A stretch of DNA of 28,471 bases from the IMG/VR virus record IMGVR_UViG_3300032288_003994, positions 1 through 28,471 of that record; one strand, written 5' to 3'. Below the pieces are notes generated by a model that was not told the DNA's origin, made no database searches, and saw nothing but the letters and a program-made list of their open reading frames with translations. The translations under genes were made by a program, and so were the position numbers. Within the stretch, counting starts at the first letter, position 1. Each line of letters opens with the position of its first letter. The DNA comes from a virus. Shown here one piece after another: positions 905 to 27,300 of the stretch.

Positions 905-1555
905 TTATGAAAAACTAGTTACTCCTGTTCTAGTAGATTCAACAATTAGTGGTTGTACTAAATTATTTAAATAAGAACATGTTGTTGGGTTTAATTGTTG
1001 GTTTATAACTGTGACAATATCTTTTAAAGATGCTTGTAATCCGCAACCATTTTGTTCTAAACTAACTGATGGTGTCGTTAATGATTGTGAAATTGTTCCT
1101 ACTATAAATCCTGATCCTGTTATTGATGCCTGATATGTTTGGGTGTATGCACTTGTGTTAACATTTACCCTATTACATGGTATATTTCTAGGATTAGTTG
1201 TTGTGGTTATTGGGCTAGTAGATGGCCCCGTTATTGTTGATGTGCCAGAAGTTAAAAAAGTTATTGTATTAATTTGAGTTGTTGATATAGTAGGTAAATT
1301 TGTTGTAGTATTTCCTGTAACTAAAACATTTATTGGTATATCAAATGTCACCGTTTTTGTTGGTGGTAATGTAGGTATTATTTCTATTTTAAAGTTAGTA
1401 TTTTTTGTTTGTGATCCTAAACTATTTGAGGTTGTTTGACTTGTTTGTGTTAAATTAATAGTATAATTTTGAAAAGTATTTTGTGGCGTTAGTGTTACTG
1501 ATTGTGATGTTGTTAAAAATGGTGTACTTGAATCTTTAACATAAACCGTGTATGT
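905..1555 (-). CDS. C-terminal continuation of the interrupted SprB-type adhesin gene
   Basis: This is the stretch after the in-frame TGA at 1556-1558. It stays in exactly the same frame as the ORF ending there and runs about 216 codons to TAA. The first residues after the TGA, TYTVYVKDSSTPF, complete the SprB-like repeat that the stop cuts in two. The rest is Thr/Ser/Asn-rich beta-type sequence ending in VESTRTGVTSFS. There is no ATG anywhere in this segment; the only alternative start is a GTG at 1349-1351 with no ribosome-binding signal. An independent gene is therefore unlikely. It is either a dead remnant, a read-through extension, or the product of a sequence error. Confidence 0.6.
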   Translation of the reverse strand, partial: TYTVYVKDSSTPFLTTSQSVTLTPQNTFQNYTINLTQTSQTTSNSLGSQTKNTNFKIEIIPTLPPTKTVTFDIPINVLVTGNTTTNLPTISTTQINTITFLTSGTSTITGPSTSPITTTTNPRNIPCNRVNVNTSAYTQTYQASITGSGFIVGTISQSLTTPSVSLEQNGCGLQASLKDIVTVINQQLNPTTCSYLNNLVQPLIVESTRTGVTSFS

Positions 1556-1558
1556 TCA
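1556..1558 (-). other. In-frame TGA interrupting a 540-codon reading frame
   Basis: The coding strand reads GCA GCA TGA ACA TAC, translated Ala-Ala-stop-Thr-Tyr. Sister repeats in this window read LxAGTYx or LTAGNYT at the same place (for example SAGTYYATF and TAGTYSVLV), so glycine is expected and a single GGA-to-TGA change would explain the stop. This is the only TGA ending an open frame among the real genes; the other 20 stops are all TAA. Confidence 0.7.
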
Positions 1559-2524
1559 TGCTGCTAAATTTGTTAGAATATTTGTAGTATAAAAATTAAT
1601 ATTATCTAACGAATAATAATAAGGCGATATTCCTCCTGAAACATTCACAAATATTGTACCATCACTTGATGTTGTACAACTTGGGTTGGTTCTGTCTAAT
1701 ATTAAGTTTAATGGTGGTGATGTACAAACACCTGAAGTTACAGTTAATGTATATCCATTTATACCATTTAATGTCCAAACACCTGTAGGTGGTGGTGTAG
1801 GGTTATTAAATGTAGGTAAACCATAATAAGGTACCCCATATGTTGTCCATCCAGATATTTCCCATCTTGTGTTACCGGTACTGTAGTAAATTAAAAAAGG
1901 GGGTGTTGAACTTGACCATGATGGGTAGTTATTAATGGTATTTGCAGAATAAAAAGTTGTTTGATATATTGTTGATCCCTTTCTATAAGTTAAACATAAA
2001 TTTTCAGGGTATGTTGGTGTTGGTTCGGGTGGTGGTAAACAGTCTTGGCAATTATCGTATGGACCACTATTAATAACCGCAAATTGATTAAAGTATGTTT
2101 GACCCGTATAAAGGGTTGTTCCACTACTTAACCAACAACCTGTTTGAGTTGTTAATTCATATGTTTTACCTGAAGTAAAAATAGAAGGTAAGTCTGCTAA
2201 ATAATAAATCTTAGTACTATCCTTACAGTTTTCAAATTCTTCAATATAAAAACTATCAAACTCAACAGTACATGTTGTTGTTGCACTAAAATCACCATAA
2301 TAATCAACAACGGTTGCGGTATATTCACCAGGACCTAAATTAGTAAGTAAAGTTCCTTTTGATCCATTATCCCAACTAACATTATATGGTGGTGTTCCTC
2401 CCGTTATATATAAAGTAACAAGTCCATTTGTATCATCTGGCGTTGACGCATTTATACTATCACAATCTAAACCTAAAGGAAAGATTGTTATTATATTACA
2501 ACTATTTCCACTTAAAAGACCCAT
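1556..2524 (-). CDS. SprB-repeat adhesin-like tail protein, N-terminal part (stops at in-frame TGA)
   Basis: The product is 322 residues up to the TGA. A first SprB-like module spans about residues 15-88, with TGGTPPYNVSWDNG, LGPGEYTATVVD and a closing Cys. A Cys-rich segment follows at about 95-165 and ends in YDNCQDCLPPPEPTPTYP. A module at about 175-265 contains FLIYYSTGNTRWEISGW and resembles one in the Thr-Pro-rich protein at 5213-7018. A second SprB-like module starts near 278 (NPSCTTSSDGT, VSGGISPYYYS) and is cut by the stop. The ATG at 2524 overlaps the TAA of the upstream gene (TAATG), which supports this start and translational coupling. Likely a virion surface or receptor-binding protein. 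The SprB resemblance is from visible motifs; the role is inferred. Confidence 0.75.
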   Translation of the reverse strand: MGLLSGNSCNIITIFPLGLDCDSINASTPDDTNGLVTLYITGGTPPYNVSWDNGSKGTLLTNLGPGEYTATVVDYYGDFSATTTCTVEFDSFYIEEFENCKDSTKIYYLADLPSIFTSGKTYELTTQTGCWLSSGTTLYTGQTYFNQFAVINSGPYDNCQDCLPPPEPTPTYPENLCLTYRKGSTIYQTTFYSANTINNYPSWSSSTPPFLIYYSTGNTRWEISGWTTYGVPYYGLPTFNNPTPPPTGVWTLNGINGYTLTVTSGVCTSPPLNLILDRTNPSCTTSSDGTIFVNVSGGISPYYYSLDNINFYTTNILTNLAA

Positions 2525-2745
2525 TATATTTCTTTTTTATTAATTATTGTTCTTGTACCACCACTAAATAATAGTATTTCATTTCTGTTTAAAGGAAATC
2601 TATATGTAAACATTAGTTCATCTATTTTTTTAAAACATTCCTCTTGATAGTCGTTTTCAAAAATTTTATGAGGTGTGACTGTAGTTCCATTTGTTTCAAA
2701 CAAATGAATAATTCTTGTATCATTATATATTAATCTCCAAATCAT
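2524..2745 (-). CDS. Small unknown protein, 73 aa
   Basis: The ATG at 2743-2745 overlaps the TAA of the LRR-like gene (TAATG), and its own TAA overlaps the next ATG at 2524 in the same way. A TTG 21 bases upstream is a possible but less likely start. The product begins MIWRLIYNDTRIIHLFE, ends in IINKKEI, and is mixed charged and hydrophobic, unlike the Thr/Asn-rich adhesins around it. No signal peptide, membrane segment or known motif is visible. Its wedging between two adhesin genes with overlaps on both sides suggests co-translation, perhaps as an assembly helper or small structural subunit. I do not recognise the family. Confidence 0.75.
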   Translation of the reverse strand: MIWRLIYNDTRIIHLFETNGTTVTPHKIFENDYQEECFKKIDELMFTYRFPLNRNEILLFSGGTRTIINKKEI

Positions 2746-4013
2746 TATGTGTGTGTTATTGTCCAATTATACGGCGAGTTAGTTAAAAAAGTAATAGCAG
2801 TTAAACCATCATAACCACCAGAGCTTGAATCGGGGGCAGCATTTGTCCCACTAATATCTAATGTTATATTTGACCACCCTGTAGGGTTATATGTTGCATT
2901 TCCACTAAAATCAACAAGTATATGATTTACATCAGATGTTATCATATTGTTATTATTAAAAAGTATTATTGAATTATAAACACTAGCACCACTTAATGGT
3001 TTCATATCAACATAGTTTAAGTCACATCCTTCAAAACCAAGACCAGAATTAGTAAAATCACCAACACTAACCGGAAAAATTACATTAGTTAGTAAGGGGT
3101 TAATTCCACAACCAAATCCGTTTGGTGCTGTAAAATTTGTTATGGGGGTTAAATCTAAAGTTCCTGTTAAATTATTGCTATCTACAAGAAAAAAAACAAA
3201 ATTATTTGTTGTGTTTGGAAATGTAATTGAAGTTAAATTTGAATTTAAACTAACAAAAAATTCCCCTCCTAAACCTGATAGTGGTGTTAAATCTAAATTC
3301 CCGGTTAAATTACAAGAATTTACAAAATAATTATTAAAATTGTTAGTAGATGGTCCATGAGTTATTCCTGTTAAATTTGAATTATATGAAACATCAAAAT
3401 ATCCACCTAATTGATATTTTATGGGTGTTAGATCTAAATTTCCGGTTAAATTACAATAATTTGCAGCATAAGAATCTATGGTTTGTGTGGACGAAAATAA
3501 AACACTTGGCGAATAAGTGATTCCGGTTAAATTTGGATTATATGAAACATCAAAATTTCCAATCACATCATCTGCAGGAATAGATAAGTTACCTGTCAAA
3601 TTACAATTACTTGCATTATATGTATCAACACCAATATTAAGATATGGGTGTGTTATGCCTGTTAAATTAATATTATTATTAATTAAAAAAGTTTGGCTGA
3701 TACTGTTTGAGGAAAAATTAATATTTCCATATATATTATTGTTTTGAAAAAAAACACTATTATATGTTTCGTTAATTTTTTTTGCTTGTATTTTTATATC
3801 CCTAATGTTTGTATCGGCAGAAAACCCCGAATAAGAAAGATTATTACCAGCAATTAATACCGTCTCTAACCCATTATTTATTTTCCATGATACTCTACTA
3901 GTAAAACAACAACCATAACCAAATCCTGGTGTAAAATTGTTAGTTGATCCACTTTTTTGAAAAGTAAAAACGTCAGGTGGTAATCCATTTGATATAGAAA
4001 AGTGTTGTCTCAT
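2745..4013 (-). CDS. LRR-like repeat protein, putative tail adhesin
   Basis: The product is 422 residues starting MRQHFSISNGLPPDVF. At least four tandem units of about 47 residues are visible, starting near residues 134, 184, 232 and 278. Each carries a [CN]NLTGxLxLTPI-type strand followed by FDVSYNSNLTGITxxP, a leucine-rich-repeat-like pattern in which NxNLTGI alternates with CNLTG. Single divergent units lie on either side (NNNINLTGITHP; CDLNYVDMKPLSG). This predicts an elongated solenoid, suitable for binding a ligand. It lies between a fibre-like protein and an interrupted SprB-type protein, so a receptor-binding role on the tail is reasonable. No catalytic motif is seen. The repeat call is direct; the LRR class and the function are inferred. 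Confidence 0.8.
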   Translation of the reverse strand: MRQHFSISNGLPPDVFTFQKSGSTNNFTPGFGYGCCFTSRVSWKINNGLETVLIAGNNLSYSGFSADTNIRDIKIQAKKINETYNSVFFQNNNIYGNINFSSNSISQTFLINNNINLTGITHPYLNIGVDTYNASNCNLTGNLSIPADDVIGNFDVSYNPNLTGITYSPSVLFSSTQTIDSYAANYCNLTGNLDLTPIKYQLGGYFDVSYNSNLTGITHGPSTNNFNNYFVNSCNLTGNLDLTPLSGLGGEFFVSLNSNLTSITFPNTTNNFVFFLVDSNNLTGTLDLTPITNFTAPNGFGCGINPLLTNVIFPVSVGDFTNSGLGFEGCDLNYVDMKPLSGASVYNSIILFNNNNMITSDVNHILVDFSGNATYNPTGWSNITLDISGTNAAPDSSSGGYDGLTAITFLTNSPYNWTITHT

Positions 4014-7038: not shown

Positions 7039-8235
7039 TTATAAATATATGTCTTTTCGATTTATCCATTGGTTATTTAAGTCATATATCCAATAAACCC
7101 ACTTATGAGGTTCCTCAGTTGTTTTTAAATTTACTTTTAATTTGCTTTGATATTCTAAAAGGTCTTTTCTATATAGTAGGTCTCCGTTTTTGCTTTCAAT
7201 ACCAACATATATAAATTTAAAATTTTCAGCCGGTGGTATGTCCAAATTAAAAGTGTATTCTTTTTCTTCTATTAAAAACCATTCGGATAAATCATTGATT
7301 GGTGGTTCAATACCTTTTAATGTGTTTGGGTGTAGTCTTTTAAATTTAAAGTTAATTCCGGCATAATTTTCATAATCTTTATGTGTTCTAACAGTACCTA
7401 AACCATATACTCCAAGATCAATATTATTATCTTCTTCTTGTAACATTTGTCTTAGTCTTTTTTTACCTTCAAAATCTATTTCCCACCATTGTTTATCGAC
7501 AATACCTTTATTTTTATTTTCTTCATTAAAGTCTGTCCAATGTTTTGTTTTACCCTCTCTTATGTATTCATGCCAAATTAAAGTTTTATGTGGGTGATAC
7601 AAATCATAACCTAACGTATATGATCTTATTGCTAAACTAATCTCATCACCTGCAAAATATATATTTGGATCATATTTGTATTCTTCACAGTGTTTACCTA
7701 ATGTAAAAAAGTAACCACCAGCAACAAATCTAGCTCTTATTGGTTTTTTTAAGTTTTGCCAATTTTCAATTTCATTAGGTACAAAATTAATAGTGCCGTA
7801 TTTTGTAAAATTAGTTGCAACTATTTTATATGGTTCAACATTTAATAATTTATTTTCTACTGGGTCATACATACCAGGGTATGAAGAAATAATTGGTTTA
7901 TCTGAGTCAACCATATTAATGATTTCTATTAGTTCTTTGTCCCAATTTTGTTCAAACCTCATATGTGAATCTATTTGTAAGGTATAATCTTCGCCATTAT
8001 AAAGTCTTTGTATTTCACTTCTTGCCCAACATAACCCTTTACTTTTTGACCAATGAATATCTATTATCCTAAATCTTTTATCATAAAAAAATTCTTCTAA
8101 AGTTTCAGTTTCATCTCTTTGCCAACAAATACCAAAAGTTAAATTTTCAGGGTTTTTTGCTTTACCAATACAATCTCTGATTGTAGGTAATAATTCGGGA
8201 TCTCTATAAGACGCAATTTGAACAAATATTTTCAT
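7039..8235 (-). CDS. Glycosyltransferase, GlcNAc-transferase-like (PF11397 / GT60 type)
   Basis: The product is 398 residues. The N-terminus MKIFVQIASYRDPELLPTI, with AKNPENLTFGICWQ at about 26-39, matches the start of the Skp1-type GlcNAc-transferase family (PF11397, CAZy GT60), which transfers GlcNAc to hydroxyproline or threonine of proteins. The metal- and sugar-binding DxH-type motif is LQIDSHMRF (Asp89, His91). Further conserved-looking segments are RFVAGGYFF (169-177), FAGDEISLAIRSYTLGYD (194-211) and the HPHKTLIWHEY stretch (214-224). The last 90 residues are probably a separate small beta-domain. No signal peptide or membrane segment is seen, so it should act in the host cytoplasm. 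It is flanked by adhesin-like genes, two of which carry Thr-Pro tracts, so virion proteins are the likely acceptors. Sugar and acceptor are not shown by the sequence. Confidence 0.85.
   Translation of the reverse strand: MKIFVQIASYRDPELLPTIRDCIGKAKNPENLTFGICWQRDETETLEEFFYDKRFRIIDIHWSKSKGLCWARSEIQRLYNGEDYTLQIDSHMRFEQNWDKELIEIINMVDSDKPIISSYPGMYDPVENKLLNVEPYKIVATNFTKYGTINFVPNEIENWQNLKKPIRARFVAGGYFFTLGKHCEEYKYDPNIYFAGDEISLAIRSYTLGYDLYHPHKTLIWHEYIREGKTKHWTDFNEENKNKGIVDKQWWEIDFEGKKRLRQMLQEEDNNIDLGVYGLGTVRTHKDYENYAGINFKFKRLHPNTLKGIEPPINDLSEWFLIEEKEYTFNLDIPPAENFKFIYVGIESKNGDLLYRKDLLEYQSKLKVNLKTTEEPHKWVYWIYDLNNQWINRKDIYL
7040..7047 (-). promoter_or_regulatory. TATTTATA motif upstream of the gene starting at 7018
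   Basis: The coding strand reads CATATATTTATAAAAAAAG. It overlaps the last codons and stop of the glycosyltransferase gene and sits 21-29 bases before the next ATG. It is an exact copy of the recurrent 8-mer, and a possible late promoter or leader element. Confidence 0.3.
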
Positions 8236-9047: not shown

Positions 9048-12000
9048 TTATGGACATGTTAATATATTAGTAATTAACCCAAGATTACTTATCTGTACCA
9101 CGTATTTTGTAGGTAATGAAGGTTCTAAAAAATTATTAAAGTCTGAACCATAAACTAAAGCAATCCAATTATTACCACCATTTACTATATTAGATCCGGT
9201 AATACCTGTATAAACACCTGACCCTATATTTAAACCGTTTGAAAGTCTGTATTCTTGCTCTAATGAAAAATTATTACAAGCATCCCCACTTGTTGTTGCA
9301 CTTATAACAGATCCACCAATATATGCTCTTGATGTTACAGTACTACCATTAACATTAGCACCAAAAACTCCTTTATATGCAAAAAAATCAAGAACGATAG
9401 AACCTAAACTACCACTAATCCCTTTTATTGTTATTTTTTTAACACCAAACGTATTTGAAAGTGTGCTTACTGAAGTGGCGCTCGTTTCGTATGGTAAAAC
9501 CCCAAATCCACTACCATCAGTTTGTGCGGTAAATGTTGTTGTTGGTATGGTTTCATCATAAAATACTCCGTTAATCGTTGTGCTTCCTGATAAATTTTTA
9601 ACAAAAGGAAAATTTAACTCAAAAGTTATAATTTCATTAGGTTTTGCCGTAAAATAAATATTTCCAGTTCTAACTGTTGGTGTGCTCCATAAATTTTGTG
9701 AAAATGCGGTTCCTCCGGTTACTTTTAAATATGTTATTGGTGTTGGCGTAGGTGTTGGTGTAGGTGTTGGCGTAGGTGTTGGCGTAGGTGTTGGCGTAGG
9801 TGTTGGTGTAGGTGTTGGTGTAGGTGTTGGTGTAGGTGTTGGTGTTGGCGTAACTTCACACTCAATATCGTAAATAATTTCTAAACCTAAACTAAAGGAA
9901 GCATCGGATAAAGGATCGTAATCTCCACTACAGTTTGAACTTATCTGTAAAGTATTATTTAAAATGTCTATACTATAACTTCCAACTTCAGTTATTCCAG
10001 ATAAAATACTTTCTATTGTTGATTGCCATAACGTGTCTTGTGGTACGTCATTTAATGTTGTTGCGGTATAAAAACTTTGTGTAAATGCACTGCCATTTAT
10101 ATTTACTTCACAAATAAATTCAGCACTATTAAAAGTACAATTTGTATACCCTGAAGTTAAATCAAAAAAACCTTCATTTAACATTTCTAAAAAACCTCTT
10201 TTATTTCCTGTTGTTGTTATAAATTCATTTTTACATAAAGAAATAATTTCGTAATTTGAAATTAAAACTCCTGTACACACAATATTAAAATCTTGGGTAT
10301 TTGTACAACCGTTATTATCAGTAACTAAAACACTATAAGTACCCGCAGTTAAACCTGTTACTGTAGATCCTGTTTGACCACTTGATACATTATTTGACCA
10401 TTGATACGTAAATGGTGGTTCCCCGTTATAAATTATTAATTGTGCTTGACCATTACTACCGTCTGTACAATTTACTGTATTTATTAAACTAACTAAACTA
10501 CCGGCAGTAGAAATTATAACATCTTCAGAAACACTACACCCTTCACCATCAACAACACTTATAGTGTAGTTTCCGGCAGTTAAATTATAAAAAGTTTGAG
10601 AACTTAAAGATGTGTTTAATATTGGTGATGTATTTGTTAAAATGTAATCTAATGTTCCTGTGTAACCGCTACTCACGTCAACAGTTAATACACCATTTGG
10701 TTGTCCGCAAGTGGATCCTGATGTGGTTGCACTTATTGTGAATTTTTGATTAGAGTTTACTGTTAATGTATTAGTATAGTAACATTCTGTACCACTTCCA
10801 GAAATAATTAATAAATAATTATCGTTTGGTAAATTATTAAAAGTATACGATTGATTTAAACTAGTGTTAGCCTGTACTGTTCCTGTTGTTTCACCTGATA
10901 ATGCAAATGTATAAAACCCACCTAAACCAAGAATTTCAGCATATATACTACCATTATTTTGATTACAATTAGAATTAGTTATTATAGTATCAACAACATT
11001 AAACCCATTAGGTTGTGATAAAAATCCAGTTAAGTTTAATTCGCAAAAATTAGCATCTCTTACATTTATAAAATACGATCCGCTACTTAAACCAGATATT
11101 AGTATTGTATCATTAAATGTATAACCAACTTGTGATGTAGATGCAGAAAAATATAAAGGTCTAGTACCACCAGTTATTGTATAAGTTAATGTTCCATCAG
11201 AAGAAAAACATGATGGGTTTACTGCGGTAACTAAACCAACGCCTAAAGGATCTGCCGAATTTATTGTTTCAGACTTAGTTGTTGTACAACCTAAACTATC
11301 AGTAACGGTACATGAATACGTTCCTTGAGTCAATCCTGTTATTAGCTGTGTGGTTTCCCCATTACTCCATAAATAAGTGAATGGTCCTGTTCCTGTTATT
11401 CCAGTAACTGCCAATTTACCTTGATTAATAACACATGTTGACGTATCTACTTTCCAAAAACCAAAATCAGGGGCGGTGCTAGGCACTATAATCGCGTTTC
11501 CAGTATTTGCAGAAACATTTCCATAGTCAATAAATGTTGCATAGTAAGTACCCGCAGATAAATTAGTAAACTGATATGGTTGTGTTGGTGTTGTTATTAA
11601 GTCGTAATAATTTCCGTCTTTAAATAGAACGATAGTGTAAGGACTGGCGGTTGTTGTAGCACTAACATATAGACTACCATTTTCTTGGTTACAGGTTGTG
11701 CCGGTCGCATCATAAATTATCGCCCTAAAACAATCACTTATTGTTACATTTATTAATAAATCTTCATTAATACCTCCTGAAGAGTCATTTAATCTAAACA
11801 CATATGTATCAGCACTTAAACCTGAAAAGGTAAAAGGCCCAACACCTGTTTGCGATGGTAAACCACCAGGTACTTCATTATTAATAGTATAAGGTGGTGT
11901 TCCTTGGTTAGGAAAAATTGTTGTGGTTCCTGATAATGAGTAACAAGTACCAGTAACCGTAAAACTATAATTTAAAGGACCTAAATTACATTCTTGTGTA

Positions 12001-24720: not shown

Positions 24721-26559
24721 TTAAGAAAAGTCTACTGTTCTGAGTTGTTTTACTCTAACATTTATATCTTTTGAGTCGAATCTTATTTGATAAATTTGAT
24801 CTGGTTCGGCAAAGATAGTGTCGTCAATTAATTGTATTTCTTTTGTTTCTTTATCATTATATCTTTGTGATGTTTCAGAAGACGAATACAACCCACCAAC
24901 TTTATTATAAACTTTTAAATCTGATAGCGTAATAACTCCGGCAGTATTTTGTATTAATTTTCTTACATCAGAAACATTAACATTTTGACCTAAATCTCTA
25001 TTTGACGGTAACATGTAATTTGAAACAGCGTCGATTATTTCTGTTATTATTTGACTTTGTGAGGTATTATTTTCAATTACAACTGATATTTCAAATTCTA
25101 AATCTATGACTTTTGCAACATCAATAGAAATATAATCATTTATCATCCTGTATTTAGATAAATAAGTTGCTAAATTATCTTTAAGGGTATTAGGTACATC
25201 TTGTGTTAGATTACCGTCAGCATCATATGATATTATCTGAACTGTTATTTTATTATTGTTTTCTGTAATGGCCACTTTTGCAGGTGCCCCAAATTTACCA
25301 GGCATTGTATCAATTAAAGACTTATAATCATTAACCGTTACCGCTCTTTTTTGTGCTGCAAAATTAAAAGAAACCATATTTCTAACTTCTTCGGTTGTTG
25401 GTGGATTAGCTCCTCCGACTGCTGATGTAACATTATTAACTTTTAAAGACCTAGTAACGTTTGAATTTATTATATCTGAAGGACCGTTTACTGAAAAGTT
25501 AACAGTACCTACTTGATTTATTGATCCAACACCAACATTAGATGATGTACCTCCACCAACTCTATACTGCACAAATAATGTAGTGTTTGGTGTTACTGTT
25601 AACCCTAATCCGATATTATTTTGATAATTTTGTATATTTAATGGAACTCCTAAATTTGCAAAAGTTTGAAGTTGTTGGTTTGGTGTTGTTGTTCCTCCTC
25701 CAAATTGGATTTTCATATAACCTTCTGGCATATATTCAGTTATAAATCTATTATCTGTTTTAATGTACTTTCCAACTTTTACACCTGCCGAGTCGATTGG
25801 TTTTGTTGTGTCTTCTATAAAAACAGTATCTTCCGCTAAGGCATCTACTTCATACCATCTATTTTGTGAAGTTACAAATTCTGATGGTGGTGGTGTTGAT
25901 TGATATTGTGTACCATCTTTTTGAATAATCGCACTTACTGCTAATACATTTTTTTCAGGTAAAAAGAAATTAAAAAATGGTACAACATCGCTTGTGTTTA
26001 TTACTCTTTTAAAAACTCTTGTAACACCATTAACGACAACTTCTCTTTTTGTCATAATGTATCCAGTAATTTTGTTGTTAGCATCAAATATTGGTGTTTT
26101 AGTTCTATTAACAAAACCTTGACTATTATATTGAGTTGAAAAGTCTACGTCGTATAATGTTTCAAAGATATTACCGCCACCATTAAATTGTGCACCTGTT
26201 CTTAAAATACCTAAATATCTTGTGTCTTCACTATCACCAAATGCAGGAACCTCTATTGATATGTCAGCTAAAGCAACGGAAGGTCTAAAACCTGGTATTT
26301 TTAAACCATATGTTCTTGCAATATTATAGATAGAAGATCTTTGTTGTGCATATTGTAAAACAGTTTCTTGAATACTTCTATCAATATGGTAATGTAAGTT
26401 ATCTCCGATTGCCGCATTTAAATCCATTAAGACTGAAAAAATAGATGCGTCATTAAAATTTTGAACAACTTCAGGATAGTATTGTTGTGCATAATTTATT
26501 AAATCTTGTCTAAGACTTTCAAAATCTCTACTTGTGTAGTTAATTTTATTTGTTGCCAT
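24721..26559 (-). CDS. Baseplate wedge subunit, T4 gp6-like (baseplate J family)
   Basis: The product is 612 residues, close to T4 gp6 (660). It starts MATNKINYTSRDFESLRQDL; the INYTSRDFESLRxDL opening followed by QYYPE, FNDASIFSVLMDLNAAIGDN and LHYHIDRSIQETVLQYA is characteristic of gp6-type wedge proteins in T4-like phages. The C-terminal half has the expected segments (RAVTVNDYKSLIDTMPGKFG at about 409-428, then KITVQIISYDADGN). In T4, gp6 dimers form the inner ring of the baseplate around the hub. The ATG comes one base after the TAA of the gp25-like gene (TAATATG), so the two are co-translated. No defects are seen. Confidence 0.93.
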   Translation of the reverse strand: MATNKINYTSRDFESLRQDLINYAQQYYPEVVQNFNDASIFSVLMDLNAAIGDNLHYHIDRSIQETVLQYAQQRSSIYNIARTYGLKIPGFRPSVALADISIEVPAFGDSEDTRYLGILRTGAQFNGGGNIFETLYDVDFSTQYNSQGFVNRTKTPIFDANNKITGYIMTKREVVVNGVTRVFKRVINTSDVVPFFNFFLPEKNVLAVSAIIQKDGTQYQSTPPPSEFVTSQNRWYEVDALAEDTVFIEDTTKPIDSAGVKVGKYIKTDNRFITEYMPEGYMKIQFGGGTTTPNQQLQTFANLGVPLNIQNYQNNIGLGLTVTPNTTLFVQYRVGGGTSSNVGVGSINQVGTVNFSVNGPSDIINSNVTRSLKVNNVTSAVGGANPPTTEEVRNMVSFNFAAQKRAVTVNDYKSLIDTMPGKFGAPAKVAITENNNKITVQIISYDADGNLTQDVPNTLKDNLATYLSKYRMINDYISIDVAKVIDLEFEISVVIENNTSQSQIITEIIDAVSNYMLPSNRDLGQNVNVSDVRKLIQNTAGVITLSDLKVYNKVGGLYSSSETSQRYNDKETKEIQLIDDTIFAEPDQIYQIRFDSKDINVRVKQLRTVDFS

Positions 26560-26560
26560 A

Positions 26561-27025
26561 TTAGATATTAATTATTATAAATTCTCTAGAACCAAAAGCA
26601 CTATTATTATTAGTGTAATCTATTCTTAATTTAGCGGTGTATTCTTCTGTGTTTGCACCGGGTATTCTATATATATCACTTTGTCCTAATAATTCCTGAT
26701 TAATTTCTCCAGGGGCTTCATCAGATTGTAAATAAGGTGTTACTGATATATTATTTATTAACAAATTAGGTATATACTTATCAACTTGAGTTTGAATATC
26801 TGATTTTATTGCTTCAAAAGTTTCACCGTCAAATGGGTCAAATATAAATTCATATATTCTTGTACCAAAATCAGGTAAAAAATATCTAGTACCTTTTTTA
26901 GTTAATATTAAATGTAATAAATTAGACCTAATTTCTTGGTCTGTTGTTTCAGATAATGAAAAGTAATAACCTTTTGGGTTATCCCTAAATGGGAAATTTA
27001 CTCCATATGTTGATCCGTCTGCCAT
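26561..27025 (-). CDS. Baseplate wedge protein, gp25-like (GPW/gp25 family)
   Basis: The product is 154 residues, slightly longer than T4 gp25 (132). It starts MADGSTYGVNFPFRDNPKGY. The conserved core is LLHLILTKKGTRYFLPDFGT at about 36-55, followed by RIYEFIFDPFDGETFEAI and a regular C-terminal half with VDKYIPNLLINNISVTP. This matches the gp25/lysozyme-like baseplate family, which joins wedge to hub and helps trigger sheath contraction; the family has no real lysozyme activity. It is the first structural gene after the terminator at 27068-27089, so a promoter probably lies in the 27026-27067 gap. It sits directly before the gp6-like gene, a common pairing in T4-like phages. Confidence 0.92.
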   Translation of the reverse strand: MADGSTYGVNFPFRDNPKGYYFSLSETTDQEIRSNLLHLILTKKGTRYFLPDFGTRIYEFIFDPFDGETFEAIKSDIQTQVDKYIPNLLINNISVTPYLQSDEAPGEINQELLGQSDIYRIPGANTEEYTAKLRIDYTNNNSAFGSREFIIINI

Positions 27026-27067: not shown

Positions 27068-27089
27068 AATCCTTACTTTCGTAAGGATT
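27068..27089 (-). terminator. Rho-independent terminator after the RNR / DUF5522-like unit
   Basis: On the minus strand a nine-base-pair stem, AATCCTTAC / GTAAGGATT, closes a GAAA tetraloop and is followed by a T-run (TTTTTTATTTAT). The stop codon of the upstream 75-residue gene lies inside the hairpin. It separates the nucleotide-metabolism unit from the structural run. Confidence 0.88.
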
Positions 27090-27300
27090 CTTTAAGGTTT
27101 TGATTTCCTCTTTCGTATTGAGGTTCATAAGGACAATGTAAACACCTACTTCCACAACACTTACCCCTTCTTATATGATAATCTTCAGTCATAACCATCC
27201 TACCTTGGTTATCATAATAGAATTCGTTTGGTTGTAGTTTAGGTCCGAATTCCCTAACATATAATTGTTGTACCCAATCTTTTGATGCGTTTACTGTCAT
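27073..27300 (-). CDS. Small Cys-rich DUF5522-like protein
   Basis: The product is 75 residues starting MTVNASKDWVQQLYVREFGP. The core is MVMTEDYHIRRGKCCGSRCL followed by HCPYEP, with Cys48, Cys49, Cys53 and Cys56. This YHxxRGxCCGSxCxHCPY pattern is typical of DUF5522-type proteins common in Bacteroidota; the cysteines may bind metal. The start lies three bases after the TAA of the ribonucleotide reductase gene, so the two are co-transcribed, and its end is folded into the terminator hairpin. The biochemical role is unknown. It may be a redox or metal partner of the reductase, but only the neighbourhood suggests this. Confidence 0.8.
   Translation of the reverse strand: MTVNASKDWVQQLYVREFGPKLQPNEFYYDNQGRMVMTEDYHIRRGKCCGSRCLHCPYEPQYERGNQNLKESLRK

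What the first reader, a model, noticed from the sequence alone, without database searches (positions are those of the whole stretch)
1556..1558. Single in-frame TGA in a SprB-type adhesin gene, exactly where glycine is expected
The frame continues 216 codons past TGA with no ATG, and the repeat motif (LxAGTYxVxVxD) resumes at once. A GGA-to-TGA change explains it. All 20 other stops are TAA. UGA read as Gly is known in Gracilibacteria and Absconditabacteria (code 25), but no other in-frame UGA occurs in about 9 kb of codons, so genome-wide recoding is unlikely. Remaining options: a recent nonsense mutation that truncates a receptor-binding protein, read-through producing two forms, or a base error.
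Basis: partly seen in the sequence, partly recalled or inferred. Interest (0 to 1): 0.6.

Follow-up and report, generated by a model that had tools for sequence, protein, structure and literature searches.

The report
Lone stop codon in phage adhesin
A single base change (GGA to TGA) interrupts one phage tail-adhesin gene that is intact in all 17 related loci examined, so this is an ordinary recent nonsense change or a base-calling error and not a new genetic code.

Summary
On the minus strand, the gene at 2524..905 has one in-frame TGA (1556-1558), followed by 216 sense codons and TAA. It is the only in-frame stop in 9,088 codons, and all 20 gene ends are TAA. Seventeen related loci from uncultured phages encode the full-length protein. 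Every one has glycine at this codon; the nearest relative (about 81% identical DNA) has GGA. The stop falls inside an SprB/Ig-like domain and would remove its last two strands plus a C-terminal beta domain. The part after the stop is still conserved (dN/dS 0.20, against 0.17 in an intact pair of similar divergence) and has not evolved faster on the window's branch. The stop is therefore recent, artefactual or functionally silent. Recoding is not supported: there are no other in-frame TGAs, TGA ends about a sixth of genes in the relatives, often in overlaps with the next gene, and no UGA-suppressor tRNA was found. Programmed read-through is unlikely because no relative keeps the stop. No second record of the same virus population was found, so a true nonsense variant cannot be separated from a consensus error. 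Ordinary finding, low interest.

The parts
905..2524 (-). SprB-domain tail adhesin gene, full-length frame (539 codons plus TAA) interrupted by one TGA
   Evidence: translation; 17 related loci with an uninterrupted frame
1556..1558 (-). in-frame TGA where all 17 related loci have a Gly codon (GGA in the nearest relative)
1559..2524 (-). upstream part, 322 codons, the product if translation ends at TGA
   Evidence: SprB domain match PF13573 at residues 279-310
905..1555 (-). downstream part, 216 sense codons plus TAA, still under purifying selection
   Evidence: 75% identity to nearest relative; dN/dS 0.20 (0.13-0.29)
1490..1717 (-). Ig-like SprB domain (residues about 270-345) cut by the stop before its last two strands
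   Evidence: AlphaFold2 model, mean pLDDT 83.5, strands 273-279, 289-296, 303-306, 316-320, 323-330, 338-345
908..1477 (-). C-terminal beta-strand-rich domain (residues about 350-539) lost if translation stops at TGA
   Evidence: AlphaFold2 model

Best explanation
A single G-to-T change turned a conserved glycine codon (GGA) into TGA in an otherwise intact structural gene of an uncultured T4-like tailed phage. In a host with the standard code the ribosome would stop there, giving a 322-residue product that lacks the last two strands of an Ig-like domain and the C-terminal domain. Shown: the codon, its glycine state in all relatives, and the lack of decay downstream. Inferred: that the change is a recent nonsense variant in the sampled population or an error in the consensus; these two are about equally likely on present evidence.
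For: All 17 related loci read Gly here and none has an interior stop. The nearest relative has GGA, one base from TGA. Downstream dN/dS is 0.20 (bootstrap 0.13-0.29), against 0.17 in the intact pair L004/L005 at similar distance. Amino-acid changes on the window's branch are not in excess downstream: 15 window-derived against 23 in the relative downstream, 7 against 16 upstream, Fisher p = 0.59. It is the only same-frame split gene among 538 genes with relatives (about 176,000 codons) in the window and seven related contigs. All other window genes that align to the nearest relative's contig lack internal stops.
Against: No reads are available, and no second record of the same population was found, so neither a real variant nor an error is shown directly.
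Confidence: 0.94

Rival explanations
1. Leaky or programmed UGA read-through makes two forms of the adhesin, a short one and an extended one carrying the C-terminal domain.
For: The downstream frame is intact and conserved. TGA is followed by A, as after 36 of 94 TGA stops in relatives, so the context is not unusual either way.
Against: None of 17 related loci has a stop at this place. The stop lies inside a domain, two strands before its end. The RNA after the stop has no unusual structure (z = -0.44).
Confidence: 0.03
2. The phage or its host reads UGA as glycine (code 25) or another residue.
For: The residue is Gly in every relative, and no gene in the window ends in TGA.
Against: One TGA against 679 ordinary Gly codons. 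If TGA were even 1% of Gly codons, seeing none among about 680 would have probability about 0.001. In relatives TGA ends about 136 of roughly 790 gene calls, and 77% of the TGA-ended genes of at least 100 aa overlap the next gene. No UGA-suppressor tRNA was found in seven related contigs. [quoted passage not shown]
Confidence: 0.015
3. The gene has been permanently split or truncated, with a functional short adhesin and a decaying or separately translated remainder.
For: A GTG at 1351 could start a 148-aa product.
Against: The remainder shows purifying selection and no further lesions. A simple mixture estimate puts neutrality at no more than about 0.24-0.36 of the branch. No relative has the split arrangement.
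Confidence: 0.015

Closest known systems
SprB-repeat proteins of uncultured tailed phages (e.g. BFVD A0A6J5LDA4)
   Same: SprB/Ig-like domain architecture; closest match in the viral structure library (E 2e-22); Pfam PF13573 above its cut-off
   Different: This copy has one in-frame TGA; the full-length relatives in IMG/VR do not
Genetic code 25 (UGA = Gly) phages of Gracilibacteria and Absconditabacteria (PMC10746230)
   Same: TGA stands where glycine is expected
   Different: Clearly code-25 phages have dense in-frame TGAs; here there is one in 9,088 codons, and TGA is a working stop in the relatives
Stop-recoded phages using translation tables 4 or 15 (PMC11210395)
   Same: Uncultured tailed phage with a stop codon inside a structural gene
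   Different: Coding density is already 0.95 under table 11, the residue is Gly and not Trp, and there is a single site

Membership tests
SprB-repeat protein (Pfam PF13573) | match above the curated cut-off | tested here: met
   41.9 bits against cut-off 28, two stretches; nearest relative 43.6 bits
T4-like contractile-tail phage structural cluster | gp25-type and baseplate-J/gp6-type genes nearby | tested here: met
   PF04965 at 26561-27025 and PF04865 at 24721-26559; PHROG baseplate wedge subunits
Receptor-binding protein or adhesin | binds the host surface | not testable with these tools
   inferred from domain type and neighbourhood only
Genetic code 25 phage | many in-frame TGAs at Gly positions | tested here: not met
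   one TGA in 9,088 codons
Genetic code 25 phage | TGA not used as a terminator | tested here: inconclusive
   0 of 20 window genes end in TGA, but relatives use TGA as a terminator, with overlaps
Suppressor-tRNA recoded phage | tRNA with UCA anticodon | tested here: inconclusive
   none in the window or in seven related contigs; the window is a 28 kb fragment
Programmed stop read-through | stop conserved among relatives | tested here: not met
   0 of 17 related loci have a stop here

The most novel reading that the evidence does not exclude
In this lineage alone, UGA in the adhesin is read through at a useful rate, so particles carry mixed short and long adhesins and can differ in binding.
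Probability: 0.03. Interest if true: 0.45.

Novelty: already known. Interest (0 to 1): 0.1.

Why it matters
It matters little by itself: single nonsense changes and consensus errors are ordinary in metagenome-assembled phage genomes. It is a useful negative example, since a lone in-frame stop at a glycine position should not be taken as recoding without relatives and codon counts.

Tried and rejected
Code 25 or other recoding: rejected from codon counts, terminator use in relatives and tRNA scans. Selenocysteine-type or structured read-through signal: no unusual fold after the stop. A start-stop junction: the ATGA at the stop opens only a 7-codon frame (ATG AAC ATA CAC GGT TTA TGT TAA, read), so it is not a gene start. 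Frameshift: not needed, because the same frame continues. Same-population records: none by exact flank search or by peptide patterns from the downstream part. A degenerate search for the motif with any base at the first codon position found three records, all GGA. Named phage records: no match to this gene. The structure of the truncated protein alone was too poor to use (mean pLDDT 35). Matches in solved structures were generic Ig-domain chains with low TM-scores.

Full report
What is there. The window is a 28,471-base virus record from an uncultured tailed phage. It carries gp25-type and gp6/baseplate-J-type baseplate genes, a run of large structural genes and part of a ribonucleotide reductase, all on the minus strand. 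The best named relatives of the baseplate gene, by weak protein similarity (25-28%), include Flavobacterium phages. The gene in question runs from ATG at 2524 down to TAA at 905 and has one in-frame TGA at 1556-1558. After it come 216 sense codons without Met. Shuffled versions of that stretch gave on average 16 stops per frame and never one or fewer in 2000 trials. The window has 20 gene ends, all TAA, and this is the only in-frame stop in 9,088 codons.

Relatives. A search of IMG/VR with the upstream part gave 16 loci, and a motif search added a further full-length one, L059. A few are duplicates or near-duplicates of each other (L007/L008/L010, L016/L017). Every one encodes the whole protein without interruption and has glycine at this codon. 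The nearest relative (L002, 89% identical upstream and 75% downstream in protein, about 81% in DNA) reads GGA.

What the stop does. A model of the full frame, made by reading the TGA as Gly and using the alignment of relatives, has mean pLDDT 83.5. It places the codon at the start of the fifth of six strands of an Ig-like domain, followed by a separate beta-rich C-terminal domain. Pfam calls this domain SprB (PF13573). A product ending at TGA would have an incomplete domain and would lack the C-terminal domain. This is not a natural domain boundary.

Age and state. Between the window and its nearest relative, dN/dS is 0.09 upstream and 0.20 downstream (bootstrap 0.13-0.29). The intact pair L004/L005, at a similar distance, gives 0.11 and 0.17. 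Changes assigned to the window's branch are not in excess downstream (15 against 23 in the relative; upstream 7 against 16; Fisher p = 0.59). A simple mixture estimate allows at most roughly a quarter to a third of the branch without constraint. The remainder shows no second lesion. So the stop is recent, or it is not in the real virus, or it is read through.

Base rate. In the window and seven related contigs, 538 genes with relatives (about 176,000 codons) were checked for split genes. The window's gene was the only same-frame split. One different-frame pair was also seen, in contig G006. Such lesions are rare in these assemblies, but one case in this much sequence needs no special mechanism.

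Recoding. Under table 11 the gene calls already cover 0.95 of the window. Glycine uses 679 ordinary codons against one TGA. In relatives TGA ends about 136 of roughly 790 gene calls. Of the TGA-ended genes of at least 100 aa that have a same-strand neighbour, 77% overlap the next gene, against 23% for TAA, as expected of real start-stop overlaps. No tRNA with a UCA anticodon was found in the window or in seven related contigs. [quoted passage not shown] The nearest relative's two long TGA-ended genes each have another stop within two codons, so on their own they do not prove that TGA terminates; the wider set does.

Read-through. Nothing positive supports it beyond the intact downstream frame, which a recent change explains as well. 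No relative keeps the stop, and the RNA after it folds no better than shuffles.

Verdict. An isolated GGA-to-TGA change in a phage SprB-type structural gene: a recent nonsense variant or a consensus error, which these data cannot separate.

Noticed in passing
window 2524-4013: Two genes (80 aa and a 422 aa repeat-rich, leucine-rich-like protein) lie where the nearest relative's contig G001 has no matching sequence; likely a lineage-specific insertion or loss in the tail cluster.
   Followed up: partly
window 9048-9865: The C-terminal part of the 1040-aa SprB-repeat gene (after about residue 775, around a long Thr-Pro repeat linker) does not align with the nearest relative, while the rest is 83% identical; looks like exchange of a tip module.
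   Followed up: partly
window 7039-8235: A GlcNAc-type glycosyltransferase (PF11397, E 1e-67) sits inside the tail-gene cluster and might modify tail proteins.
   Followed up: no
window 27073-27300: A small DUF5522 protein (PF17653) lies between the baseplate genes and ribonucleotide reductase.
   Followed up: no
L030 and L031 (contig G006): The related 109 kb contig carries a large tRNA cluster, including one ARAGORN call with an odd four-base anticodon (ttaa).
   Followed up: no
G006 50537-52832 (within L028): Two adjacent genes in different frames match one 815-aa gene of G009; a gene split or a frameshift.
   Followed up: no
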